Below are positions 4,095-7,814 of a DNA stretch of 64,000 nucleotides, piece after piece (the first letter of the stretch is position 1; the number at the start of each line of letters is the position of its first letter). A model generated the notes under the pieces. That model saw nothing but the letters and a program-made list of their open reading frames with translations, had not been told where the DNA came from and ran no database searches. Source of the stretch: Caryophanales bacterium (GTDB lineage: Bacteria > Bacillota > Bacilli > Exiguobacteriales > Exiguobacteriaceae); the NCBI GenBank assembly GCA_902363455.1, contig CABJAC010000001.1, positions 868,001-932,000 on the forward strand, in the 5' to 3' direction. The position numbers were made by a program, and so were the translations under genes.

Positions 4095-6415
4095 TTGCGG
4101 AAGTTATCGTCGACGTTGCCGCGGCAACGGTTGATCGTCCGTTTGATTATGAAGTTCCGGAACTTTGGCAAAATCTCGTCGTTCCCGGTATGCGTGTCGA
4201 AGTTCCATTCGGACCAAGGGCATTACTTGGAATCGTTGTCGGAGTCAAGCCGGAATCGGAACTGGACCGCATCAAGCCGATTGTCCGGGTACTTGACGAA
4301 ACCCCGACCTATACGGAAGAGTTGCTCCGTTTGTCGTCGTATCTATCTGAAACGACACTATGTTATCAGGCGACTGCGCTTCTTGCGATGTTACCTGCTG
4401 CTCTGAAAGTCAGCTATGATAAACTGATTTTGACGGAAAGTCCGAAATGGGCAAACTGGAATCATAAGAAAATTAGCCAGTTTCCGAGTGAAGTCCAACA
4501 AAAGATTTTATTAGCTGCGCAAACAGGAGACATACACCTTCAACCGGTCGTCAAAGAAAAAAAGACGTCCAAAACCGATAAGCGAATCCGGTTACTGGAC
4601 GCAACGATTGAATTATCAAAAAAAGCAACAAAACAGATTATGCTTCGGGAACACCTGCTGGAACGACCGGAAGTGCTGTGGAGTGAAGTCATGCATGAAC
4701 TTGACTTAACGGTCAGCATTCTGAACAGTCTCGAGAAAAAAGGTGTGATTACGGTTGAAACGATTGATGTGAACCGTAATCCGTACGAACATCTGGTTCA
4801 AGATATTTTTGTTCCTTCCACATTGACGACGCATCAGCAGGATGCTGTCGACGCCGTTACGGCACCGGATGAGACAAACACGTTTTTACTGCACGGGGTG
4901 ACCGGAAGCGGAAAAACAGAAGTGTATTTAGAATCGATTCACACGATGCTTGAACGGGGACGGCAAGCCATCCTGCTCGTACCGGAAATCAGTTTAACGC
5001 CGATGATGGTCAAACGGTTTAAAAGACGGTTTGGGGAACGGGTTGCTGTCCTGCATAGCGGTCTGTCCTTAGGCGAAAAATATGATGAATGGCGGAAAAT
5101 TGCTCAAGGTGAAGTAGAGGTCGTCGTCGGAGCACGTTCGGCGATTTTTGCTCCACTGACGAACATTGGTCTCATTATTTTGGATGAGGAGCATGAAACA
5201 ACCTATAAACAAGAAGAAAATCCGCGGTACCACACACGGGATGTCGCGACGTGGCGGGCCGCGTATCATCGCTGTCCTGTCGTGCTCGGCAGTGCGACGC
5301 CAATTCTTGAGACGTATGCACGTGCCCAAAAAGGGGTATACCGCTATTTGCCGTTGACCGAACGGTTTGGAGGCGAACTGCCTCCGGTCGATATCATTGA
5401 TATGCGAAAAGAACTGGAACGCGGCAACCGAACTCCATTCAGTCTGTCGCTCATCGAAGGCATAAAACAACGGATTGAACGCGGGGAACAGACGGTTTTA
5501 CTATTAAATCGCCGAGGGTATACGACGTTCGTTCTTTGTCGGGACTGTGGGGAAACACTTCAGTGTCCGCACTGTGCCGTCAATTTGACCTACCACCAGC
5601 AGCAAGATTGTTTGAAGTGCCATTACTGCGGATTTGAAGCGGCGATGCCGAAAACCTGTCCTTCCTGCGAATCCCAAAAGATTCGTCAATTCGGTACCGG
5701 TACACAAAAAATTGAAGAAGAATTGTCCCATTTGATTCCGGAAGCTAAAATCATCCGAATGGATCAAGATACCACGTCCCGTAAAGGGGCTCATGAGAAG
5801 TTGCTGAATGCCTTTGAACGGGGAGAAGGCAATATTTTGCTCGGGACACAAATGATTGCGAAAGGACTCGATTTTCCTAACGTGACACTTGTTGGTGTCA
5901 TCGCGGCGGATGCCACTCTCGGAATTCCCGATTTTCGTGCCAGTGAACGAACGTTTCAACTGATCACACAGGTTTCGGGGCGTGCCGGTCGTGGAATCCT
6001 TGCCGGACAATCGATTATCCAAACGTATAATCCGGAGCATTACGTCATCCAAACTGCAAAGCGGCATGATTATGAAGCATTTTATCAGCGGGAAATGCAA
6101 TTACGAAAACTCGGGGGGCATCCACCGTTCTGGTTTTTGGGGCTGGTGACCGTCTCGGCGGCACACCCACTCGAAGCCCAGGCGGAAGCCGAGGCAGTGG
6201 CGGATCAACTCCGCCATCTGGAATCAGATGATTTGGTCATCAATGGACCGCTCGAAGCCCCGCTGGCACGGCTGAAAAATATGTATCGATATCAAGTGAT
6301 TTTGAAACATAAAGGACAGGAAGAAGTCCGGGAGGCGCTCCGGGCGATGCTTGCGTTACGCATCAAACAAAAAGTCCAAGTAACAGTGGATCTGAATCCA
6401 TTTGTATTTATGTGA
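4091..6415 (+). CDS. priA: primosomal protein N', replication restart helicase PriA
   Basis: A 774-residue superfamily 2 helicase that recognises stalled or D-loop forks and reloads the replicative helicase through DnaD/DnaB/DnaI. The N-terminal 3'-DNA-binding and winged-helix domains (about 1-200) precede Walker A GVTGSGKTEVY (about residue 270), the DEEH box (about 364) and a C-terminal helicase lobe interrupted by eight cysteines (about 483-535) arranged as two zinc sites (CRDC, CPHC, CHYC, CPSC). All key motifs look intact. It overlaps coaBC by four bases. The def::fmt ribosome binding site GAGGTGG spans its stop codon, so expression should be coupled down the run. Confidence 0.96.
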   Translation: MIAEVIVDVAAATVDRPFDYEVPELWQNLVVPGMRVEVPFGPRALLGIVVGVKPESELDRIKPIVRVLDETPTYTEELLRLSSYLSETTLCYQATALLAMLPAALKVSYDKLILTESPKWANWNHKKISQFPSEVQQKILLAAQTGDIHLQPVVKEKKTSKTDKRIRLLDATIELSKKATKQIMLREHLLERPEVLWSEVMHELDLTVSILNSLEKKGVITVETIDVNRNPYEHLVQDIFVPSTLTTHQQDAVDAVTAPDETNTFLLHGVTGSGKTEVYLESIHTMLERGRQAILLVPEISLTPMMVKRFKRRFGERVAVLHSGLSLGEKYDEWRKIAQGEVEVVVGARSAIFAPLTNIGLIILDEEHETTYKQEENPRYHTRDVATWRAAYHRCPVVLGSATPILETYARAQKGVYRYLPLTERFGGELPPVDIIDMRKELERGNRTPFSLSLIEGIKQRIERGEQTVLLLNRRGYTTFVLCRDCGETLQCPHCAVNLTYHQQQDCLKCHYCGFEAAMPKTCPSCESQKIRQFGTGTQKIEEELSHLIPEAKIIRMDQDTTSRKGAHEKLLNAFERGEGNILLGTQMIAKGLDFPNVTLVGVIAADATLGIPDFRASERTFQLITQVSGRAGRGILAGQSIIQTYNPEHYVIQTAKRHDYEAFYQREMQLRKLGGHPPFWFLGLVTVSAAHPLEAQAEAEAVADQLRHLESDDLVINGPLEAPLARLKNMYRYQVILKHKGQEEVREALRAMLALRIKQKVQVTVDLNPFVFM

Positions 6416-6428
6416 GGTGGCAAAAATT

Positions 6429-7814
6429 ATGTATAAAGTAGTAGAGGTACCAAACGATGTGTTGCGTCAAACATGCCAAAAGGTGACGAAGTTTGATAAA
6501 AAGTTAGCAAAAATGATTGATCGTATGTTCGATACGATGTACGAATATGATGGTGTCGGACTGGCGGCCCCGCAGATCAATCAGCCGATTCGTGTAGCGG
6601 TTGTCCATACGGACGATGAAACAGGACCGGTCGAACTGATTAATCCGGAGATTATTGAGGCAAGCGGTTCGGAAATCGATGATGAAGGGTGCTTGAGCAT
6701 GCCGGGTATTTTTGGACCTGTCGAGCGATTCGAACAGATTATCGTCAAATCGCAGGATCGTCTGGGACGGAGTGTCAAAATCAAGGCAACCGGATTTTTT
6801 GCACGTGCGATTCAGCACGAGATGGATCATTTGGACGGTGTCTTATTTACGGATAAACTGGTCGACACTTCACGATCAACGCGTGTTGTCTTCATGGGGA
6901 CACCGGAGTTCGCCGCGAATACGCTCCGTGAAGTCATCGATGCCGGATATGATGTCGTTGGTGTTGTTTCGCAACCGGATAAACCAGTCGGGCGAAAACG
7001 TGAAATCAAGCCAACACCGGTCAAGGAAGTTGCGCTTGCGCATGACATTCCGGTACTGCAACCGGTTAAAATCCGTGAAGACTATCAAGAACTGCTCGAC
7101 CTGAAACCGGATTTGATCATCACGGCCGCTTACGGTCAAATTGTTCCGTCAGCTGTACTCGAAGCACCCCGGTACGGTGCGATTAACGTTCATGCTTCCT
7201 TGTTGCCGAAATACCGTGGCGGTGCACCGATTCATCAGGCAATCATCGATGGTGAAACGGAAACCGGTGTGACGATCATGTATATGGTCGATAAGCTGGA
7301 TGCGGGTGATATGTTGTCAAAAATCATTGTCCCGATTGAAGAACGCGATACAGTCGGATCGATGTTCGACAAACTCAGTGCAGCCGGTGCAAGATTATTA
7401 ATCGAAACGTTACCACAGTTGATTGCCGGAACGTTGACGGCAGAAGCTCAACAGGAAGAGAATGTCACGTTCTCCCCGAACATCAGCCGGGAACGCGAAC
7501 GGTTGGACTTTTCGCGACCAGGTGAAGACTTGTACAATCAAATCCGCGGAATGAATCCATTTCCAAGTGCGTATACGATGCTTGGTGCTGATCGCCTGAA
7601 AGTCTACTTTGCGGAAAAGGTGTCCGGTCGCGGAGCGGCTGGAGAAATCATTGCTCTTGAAGCGGACGGTCCGGTCATTGCGACAGGTTCAGACACTGCC
7701 TTGAAATTGGTGGATGTTCAGCCGGCAGGAAAAAAACGAATGGATGGTGCGACGTTTATGCGCGGTGTCGGACAAACTTTGACGATTGGACAGAAAGTGG
7801 GCGATGACGCATGA
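6429..7814 (+). CDS. fused peptide deformylase - methionyl-tRNA formyltransferase
   Basis: A single 461-residue frame carries two enzymes that normally are separate neighbours. Residues about 1-148 are a type 1 peptide deformylase with all three metal motifs: GVGLAAPQ (about 43), EGCLS (about 86) and HEMDH (about 130). Residues about 149-461 are a complete Fmt, beginning STRVVFMGTPEF where ordinary Fmt begins MTRVVFMGTPEF, with INVHASLLP, RGGAP and KLDAGD catalytic and folate-site motifs, and the C-terminal tRNA-binding domain. Def removes the N-formyl group from nascent chains; Fmt puts it on Met-tRNAi. At the junction (6874-6882) there is neither a stop for Def nor a start for Fmt. The next ATG, inside the VFMG motif, would delete the first Rossmann strand. 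Gene order def-fmt is standard; the fusion is what is odd. A sequencing error cannot be excluded. It overlaps rsmB by ATGA. Confidence 0.9.
   Translation: MYKVVEVPNDVLRQTCQKVTKFDKKLAKMIDRMFDTMYEYDGVGLAAPQINQPIRVAVVHTDDETGPVELINPEIIEASGSEIDDEGCLSMPGIFGPVERFEQIIVKSQDRLGRSVKIKATGFFARAIQHEMDHLDGVLFTDKLVDTSRSTRVVFMGTPEFAANTLREVIDAGYDVVGVVSQPDKPVGRKREIKPTPVKEVALAHDIPVLQPVKIREDYQELLDLKPDLIITAAYGQIVPSAVLEAPRYGAINVHASLLPKYRGGAPIHQAIIDGETETGVTIMYMVDKLDAGDMLSKIIVPIEERDTVGSMFDKLSAAGARLLIETLPQLIAGTLTAEAQQEENVTFSPNISRERERLDFSRPGEDLYNQIRGMNPFPSAYTMLGADRLKVYFAEKVSGRGAAGEIIALEADGPVIATGSDTALKLVDVQPAGKKRMDGATFMRGVGQTLTIGQKVGDDA

What the first reader, a model, noticed from the sequence alone, without database searches (positions are those of the whole stretch)
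6429..7814. Peptide deformylase and methionyl-tRNA formyltransferase fused in one reading frame
Seen: one 461-codon frame with all Def metal motifs and a complete Fmt, and neither a stop nor a start between. Known: the enzymes do opposite jobs on the formyl group (Fmt adds it to Met-tRNAi, Def removes it from the nascent chain) and are usually separate neighbours. Inference: the junction 6874-6882 reads CGATCAACG; an ancestral CGATGACG would have been a normal ATGA stop/start overlap (CGA-TGA for Def, ATG-ACG for Fmt), like others in this run. One substitution plus one extra base converts it to an open fusion. The product may hold a formylating and a deformylating domain at fixed ratio, with possible effects on Def access to ribosomes.
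Basis: partly seen in the sequence, partly recalled or inferred. Interest (0 to 1): 0.7.

Follow-up and report, generated by a model that had tools for sequence, protein, structure and literature searches.

The report
Fused deformylase–formyltransferase gene in Exiguobacterium
In this bacterium, the enzyme that puts a formyl tag on the first amino acid of proteins and an enzyme that takes it off are made as one joined protein; the fusion is real, shared across the genus and already published as functional, and similar fusions seem to have arisen separately in other bacterial groups.

Summary
Window 6429-7814 is one open 461-codon frame with a complete peptide deformylase (Def) and a complete methionyl-tRNA formyltransferase (Fmt). 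It is no sequencing slip: 23 of 23 other Exiguobacterium loci are open through the same junction, with linkers differing by whole codons, and 38 of 38 genomes held for the order have a Def in a 461-582 aa frame plus a second Def. In the 13 genomes tested the fused frame holds the only Fmt over the family cut-off.

It is already known: PMC12690207 (2025) reports the fusion in four Exiguobacterium genomes and restores growth of an E. coli def-fmt deletion with it.

Not found in print in my searches: Def-Fmt fusions also occur in other Bacillota-like sequences and in many Patescibacteria-like ones. An Fmt tree rejects one origin for all, but does not separate Exiguobacterium from one Bacillaceae-like group. 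Bacillota Def tails are acidic, unlike the basic tails seen elsewhere, which may make C-terminal fusion tolerable (inference).

The parts
6429..7814 (+). fused def-fmt gene, 461 codons plus TGA
   Evidence: P0001 is 99% identical over the full length
6415..6420 (+). AGGTGG ribosome-binding-like site before the fused gene
   Evidence: an SD-like match before the def start in 24 of 24 Exiguobacterium sequences
6429..6872 (+). peptide deformylase domain, residues 1-148
   Evidence: Pfam PF01327
6552..6575 (+). Def motif 1 GVGLAAPQ, residues 42-49
6684..6698 (+). Def motif 2 EGCLS, residues 86-90
   Evidence: metal-ligand role of the Cys recalled
6813..6830 (+). Def motif 3 QHEMDH, residues 129-134
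6861..6881 (+). junction/linker, residues 145-151, including CGATCAACG at 6873-6881; differs by whole codons between species; no SD-like site at the usual distance before the following ATG
   Evidence: mean pLDDT of residues 141-150 falls to 73
6882..7412 (+). Fmt N-terminal (catalytic) domain, residues 152-328
   Evidence: Pfam PF00551
7185..7220 (+). Fmt stretch NVHASLLPKYRG, residues 253-264
   Evidence: catalytic role recalled
7479..7766 (+). Fmt C-terminal domain, residues 351-446
   Evidence: Pfam PF02911

Best explanation
The gene encodes one bifunctional protein, a Def domain joined by a short flexible linker to a complete Fmt. Shown: one frame, both domains and motifs intact, few amino-acid changes relative to silent ones in both halves, conservation across the genus, and (published, for the E. 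alkaliphilum homologue) growth of E. coli lacking def-fmt restored by the fusion. Inferred: the two domains work as two enzymes made in equal amounts; Fmt is the sole formylase of the cell, while deformylation is shared with a second, free Def; no separate Fmt is made. The fusion arose once before the genus radiated. It was tolerable because the Bacillota Def C-terminus is an acidic tail and not the basic ribosome-docking helix of E. coli-type Def, so little was lost when Fmt took its place.
For: Open frame and domains. Conservation: 23 of 23 Exiguobacterium loci fused; 38 of 38 genomes of the order have a Def in an open frame of 461-582 aa plus a second Def. One Fmt over the TIGR00460 cut-off in 13 of 13 genomes, in the fused frame. 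Products of 458-466 aa with linkers differing by whole codons. Uncorrected pN/pS 0.06 (Def) and 0.11 (Fmt) in each of two clades, 0.24-0.30 in the linker. SD-like site before def in 24 of 24, before the internal ATG found in all 24, in 0 of 24. AlphaFold2: mean pLDDT 93.9, pTM 0.67, dip at the linker. Complementation and second PDF: PMC12690207 (passages, section 7 whole). Tail charge: 25 of 25 separate Bacillales Defs net -1 to -8; 18 of 18 from other phyla or unclassified bacteria net +2 to +9. Docking of PDF on L22 by its C-terminal helix: PMC8712518 (passages).
Against: No proteomic or blot evidence of the joined product in Exiguobacterium was seen; cleavage after translation is not excluded. 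The SD scan is a weak test: its control before rsmB rang in 14 of 24, and in 0 of the 10 sequences of the window's own clade; one species (L005) has AGGAGG 26 bases before the internal ATG. Silent sites are near saturation, so pN/pS is rough. Domain orientation is undetermined (pTM 0.67). The tail-charge contrast follows phylogeny and was not tested on ribosomes. Fig. S1 of the complementation was not seen. The second Def was not seen in the window's own genome, which is not held.
Confidence: 0.9

Rival explanations
1. Sequencing or assembly error (one-base indel) that opened a normal def/fmt overlap in this one strain.
For: Separate overlapping genes are normal: 17 of 38 measured separate pairs overlap by 4 bases.
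Against: 23 of 23 other Exiguobacterium loci are open through the junction, with different junction letters and whole-codon length differences; 38 of 38 genomes of the order have a long Def frame.
Confidence: 0.01
2. The joined frame makes both a fusion and a free Fmt through internal initiation, so the ratio is not fixed.
For: An ATG (in FMGT) is present in all 24 sequences, and several public Exiguobacterium Fmt records begin inside the fused frame: P0013 at residue 156, P0020 at 139, P0021 at 138. The SD scan that argues against it is weak: its rsmB control rang in 0 of 10 of the window's clade.
Against: No SD-like site 6-18 bases before that ATG in 24 of 24; starting there would remove the first strand of Fmt (E152-157); separate Fmts have the same Met inside. 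No dip of synonymous change at the junction itself.
Confidence: 0.06
3. One half is a passenger: the second Def does the cell's deformylation and the fused Def is decaying, or the reverse.
For: A second Def is present in 38 of 38 genomes, with intact motifs in 11 of 11 Exiguobacterium loci read.
Against: pN/pS of the fused Def (0.06) is lower than that of Fmt (0.11) in both clades; Def motifs intact; the published complementation is read by its authors as showing both activities.
Confidence: 0.03

Closest known systems
Def-Fmt fusion of Exiguobacterium (Mol Biol Evol 2025, PMC12690207)
   Same: Same genus, same gene, second free PDF; the E. alkaliphilum version worked in an E. coli def-fmt deletion (section 7).
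   Different: That section reports four reference genomes; here 23 loci and 38 genomes, the junctions, the internal-start check, and further fusions outside the genus.
Separate def and fmt genes of Bacillales (solved: 4iqf, Bacillus anthracis Fmt; 1ws0, Bacillus cereus Def)
   Same: Same enzymes: the model matches 4iqf (56-57% identity, rmsd 1.0-1.2) and 1ws0 (52%, rmsd 0.5). The window's neighbours priA, coaBC, rsmB and PP2C fit the B. subtilis order (recalled).
   Different: There a stop codon separates the genes and Def has a 13-26 residue acidic tail. No solved chain among those shown matches both domains (60 of 153 shown; 50 of 1490).
ArnA (sugar-nucleotide formyltransferase fused to another enzyme)
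   Same: A Fmt-like domain in a bifunctional chain.
   Different: Different substrate and partner domain (recalled); the window scores 156 bits against the ArnA model's cut-off of 777.

Membership tests
peptide deformylase (PF01327 / TIGR00079) | profile match over the curated cut-off | tested here: met
   168 bits vs 22.8; 164.5 vs 103.95
peptide deformylase (PF01327 / TIGR00079) | three catalytic motifs GxGxAAPQ, EGCxS, HExxH (motif forms recalled) | tested here: met
   GVGLAAPQ, EGCLS, HEMDH
peptide deformylase (PF01327 / TIGR00079) | basic C-terminal ribosome-docking helix as in E. coli (not shared by the whole family) | tested here: not met
   a short linker to Fmt stands there; separate Bacillales Defs have acidic tails too, so this does not exclude membership
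methionyl-tRNA formyltransferase (TIGR00460) | equivalog profile match over the cut-off, both domains | tested here: met
   327.6 bits vs 201.5, residues 152-449; PF00551 and PF02911
methionyl-tRNA formyltransferase (TIGR00460) | made from its own start codon (usual, not defining) | tested here: inconclusive
   fused to Def; no SD-like site before the internal ATG in 24 of 24, but the scan's rsmB control rang in only 14 of 24
published Exiguobacterium def-fmt fusion | single frame Def+Fmt in Exiguobacterium | tested here: met
published Exiguobacterium def-fmt fusion | a second PDF elsewhere in the genome | tested here: inconclusive
   38 of 38 genomes of the order, but the window's own genome is not held
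published Exiguobacterium def-fmt fusion | both activities in vivo | not testable with these tools
   shown for E. alkaliphilum in PMC12690207; E. alkaliphilum 12/1 is 68% identical to the window protein (L017)

The most novel reading that the evidence does not exclude
Def-Fmt fusion is a recurrent, convergent architecture, not an oddity of one genus: it arose separately several times, including in Bacillota other than Exiguobacterium and in a broad Patescibacteria (Zambryskibacteria/Parcubacteria) group, and it is permitted where Def does not use a basic C-terminal helix to dock on the ribosome. In the Patescibacteria the fusion may be the cell's only Def and only Fmt.
Probability: 0.45. Interest if true: 0.5.

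Novelty: already known. Interest (0 to 1): 0.32.

Why it matters
The fusion puts the enzyme that adds the formyl group and one that removes it on one chain. That separates two ideas usually tied together: that Def must dock on the ribosome by its C-terminus, and that Fmt and Def amounts need separate control. The Exiguobacterium case is published; the apparent repeated origin, especially across Patescibacteria-like sequences, would give natural test cases for how much ribosome docking and free Def matter.

Tried and rejected
Own-genome search: not held. Sequencing error: rejected. Internal start for a free Fmt: no support, but the scan is weak. Co-translational pause at a tunnel's length after Def: suggested at first by a significant dip of synonymous change at about residues 165-183 over 23 sequences in two clades (0 of 1000 permutations). 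The dip is confined to the other Exiguobacterium clade (13 sequences, 0 of 2000) and absent from the window's clade (10 sequences, P 0.38), so it is no property of the fusion as such; codon use there is not unusually rare. L010 (E. flavidum) was left out of both clade sets. Single origin of all fusions: rejected on the Fmt tree (AU p 2e-26), as are Exiguobacterium with six Patescibacteria-like rows (p 0.005) and Exiguobacterium with P0015 (p 0.001); Exiguobacterium with the Bacillaceae-like rows P0016/18/19/23 as one clade is NOT rejected (p 0.11). These groups were named after the tree had been seen, and only a quick tree was made. Fusions in named isolates outside the genus: none found; 0 stop-free full-length matches listed among 397 genomes of the Bacillus order. 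So the other Bacillota-like fusions rest largely on unnamed or metagenomic records and may include assembly errors. The class survey (398 genomes) lists only part of its matches; in the rows listed, frames over 400 aa came only from genomes that are also in the Exiguobacterium order. Literature: the listings showed no report of Def-Fmt fusion outside Exiguobacterium; besides PMC12690207 and PMC8712518 no paper was opened, and subscription journals and preprints are not covered.

Full report
OBSERVATION. Window 6429-7814 is a single frame of 461 codons. Pfam places a complete deformylase at residues 1-148 and both domains of Fmt at 152-328 and 351-446; NCBIfam gives both equivalogs over their cut-offs. 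The Def motifs GVGLAAPQ, EGCLS and QHEMDH and the Fmt stretch NVHASLLPKYRG are intact. The window is Exiguobacterium: the best protein hit, 99% identical over its full length, is from Exiguobacterium sp. S22-S28. The neighbours are coaBC and priA upstream and rsmB and a PP2C phosphatase downstream, and fmt overlaps rsmB as ATGA at 7811-7814.

IS IT REAL? Of 80 related loci fetched from public genomes, a one-frame motif test found the fusion in 23 of 23 from Exiguobacterium and in 0 of 57 others. Among the 57, the test saw no Def in 9 and no Fmt in 3 (L064, L065, L073), so 45 are informative separate pairs. All 38 genomes held for the order of E. sibiricum have a Def in an open frame of 461-582 aa and a second Def elsewhere; one of the second Defs (G009) has a stop in the frame matched. 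That the long frame holds Fmt was checked in 13 of them: each has exactly one Fmt over the TIGR00460 cut-off, in the fused frame, and one or two weaker matches under it. Junctions differ in letters and by whole codons. Uncorrected pN/pS is 0.06 in Def, 0.11 in Fmt and 0.24-0.30 in the linker in each of two clades (10 and 13 sequences; L010 left out; silent sites near saturation). A chance or erroneous fusion is excluded.

IS FMT ALSO MADE ALONE? An SD-like site lies 6-18 bases before the def start in 24 of 24 and before the internal ATG in 0 of 24. The scan is a weak test: before a start near rsmB it rang in 14 of 24, and in none of the 10 sequences of the window's clade. L005 has AGGAGG 26 bases before the ATG. 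Starting at that ATG would cost Fmt its first strand. Several public records do begin inside the frame: P0013 is an exact suffix of the fused frame of L002 from residue 156, P0020 of L017 from 139 and P0021 of L018 from 138; P0014 and P0022 begin at about 155 and 158 of related frames. I read these as annotation choices, not biology.

HISTORY OF THE JUNCTION. Of the 57 other loci, measured the spacing in 38 def/fmt pairs: 17 overlap by four bases (12 ATGA, 5 TTGA). In one further pair no start was found, 10 loci showed no pair and in 8 no Fmt start motif was found. But none of the other 23 Exiguobacterium junctions has CGATCAACG. After the point HExDH plus eight residues, Exiguobacterium has 7-14 residues before Fmt's first strand, without the acidic tail of 13-26 residues of the 25 separate Bacillales Defs measured. 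An alternative starting point is known: in 397 genomes of the Bacillus order, 34 give a full-length match to a fused query (P0018), and these have one (30) or two (4) in-frame stops inside, none zero. In these, def and fmt stand in the same frame, and loss of the stop would join them. Which route Exiguobacterium took cannot be told.

HOW IT WORKS. AlphaFold2 on an alignment of 50 fused sequences gives two confident domains (mean pLDDT 93.9) with a dip at residues 141-150 and pTM 0.67: two folded enzymes with no fixed orientation shown. They match B. anthracis Fmt and B. cereus Def closely. PDF docks on ribosomal protein L22 by its C-terminal helix (PMC8712518, passages only; that this is the E. 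coli enzyme is recalled). In the fusion that place is taken by Fmt. Tails of separate Defs: 25 of 25 Bacillales in the broad sense net -1 to -8, 4 of 4 Lachnospiraceae -10 to -12, L055 -2, and 18 of 18 from other phyla or unclassified bacteria +2 to +9. My inference is that this lineage did not rely on a basic helix, so the fusion cost little there, and that the second Def shares deformylation. This is not tested, and the contrast follows phylogeny.

KNOWN OR NEW. PMC12690207 (Mol Biol Evol, Nov 2025; passages, section 7 whole, Fig. S1 not seen) reports def and fmt fused in the four Exiguobacterium reference genomes, a second PDF in all, and normal growth of an E. coli def-fmt deletion with the synthesized fusion (that of E. 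alkaliphilum). The finding is therefore already known. Not in that section, and not in the listings of my other searches, is the occurrence elsewhere. A search with the window's Def part, limited by the tool to proteins of 0.55-1.75 times the fusion's length, gave 189 matches; of the 120 listed, 63 by my count carry both Def and Fmt domains, 12 of them Exiguobacterium or close to it (66% identity or more over the fusion). With the Def part of P0214, 117 of the 120 listed (of 399 matches) carry both, with names such as Zambryskibacteria, Parcubacteria group and Patescibacteria group where a name is given. These are not prevalences, since short free Defs were outside the size limits. By motif, 162 of the 323 proteins fetched are Def-Fmt fusions; of these, 158 show the first Def motif and 162 the second. 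On an Fmt tree of 71 rows chosen from 331 by clustering (38 fused), the label needs 7 changes, at least 4 forced by well-supported branches. One clade of all fusions is rejected (p 2e-26), but Exiguobacterium with the Bacillaceae-like group is not (p 0.11). Changes may be gains or losses, transfers are possible, and many of these records are metagenomic and unnamed.

VERDICT. A real, functional and already published gene fusion; interpretation partly right; the wider recurrence is the part worth following.

Noticed in passing
L011-L022 and L029, e.g. L012 4503-4531: In one Exiguobacterium clade, synonymous codon change is significantly low over a promoter-like TTGAGC-N17-TACAAT inside the Fmt part, with a more variable spacer: perhaps an internal promoter for downstream genes. 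The promoter scan itself finds no more than shuffles do (2 vs 1.8). Not significant in the window's clade.
   Followed up: partly
P0210, P0227, P0239, P0241, P0247, P0253, P0278, P0282, P0297, P0307: Linkers of Patescibacteria-like fusions carry recurring in-frame inserts (SPRLAQAGQ, SRGxSxLxRGxGPQ, GGxPLKAVVK), which look like translated short repeat elements, comparable to palindromic elements in Rickettsia genes (recalled).
   Followed up: no
P0126, P0156, P0169, P0179, P0184, P0199, P0215: Def also occurs with other domains in one protein by precomputed Pfam: PriA, RsmD-type methylase, YajC, MsrB, TPR, ABC ATPase and a YqgF-type domain (most domain names recalled).
   Followed up: no
P0013, P0014, P0020, P0021, P0022: Public Exiguobacterium Fmt records begin at internal codons of the fused frame, so these records lack the Def half.
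   Followed up: partly
L041, L047, L049, L051, L062, L071 (Planococcus group): Synonymous change is also significantly low near the 3' end of separate fmt genes (about codon 300, 0 of 2000 permutations), perhaps from the start or RBS of the next gene.
   Followed up: no
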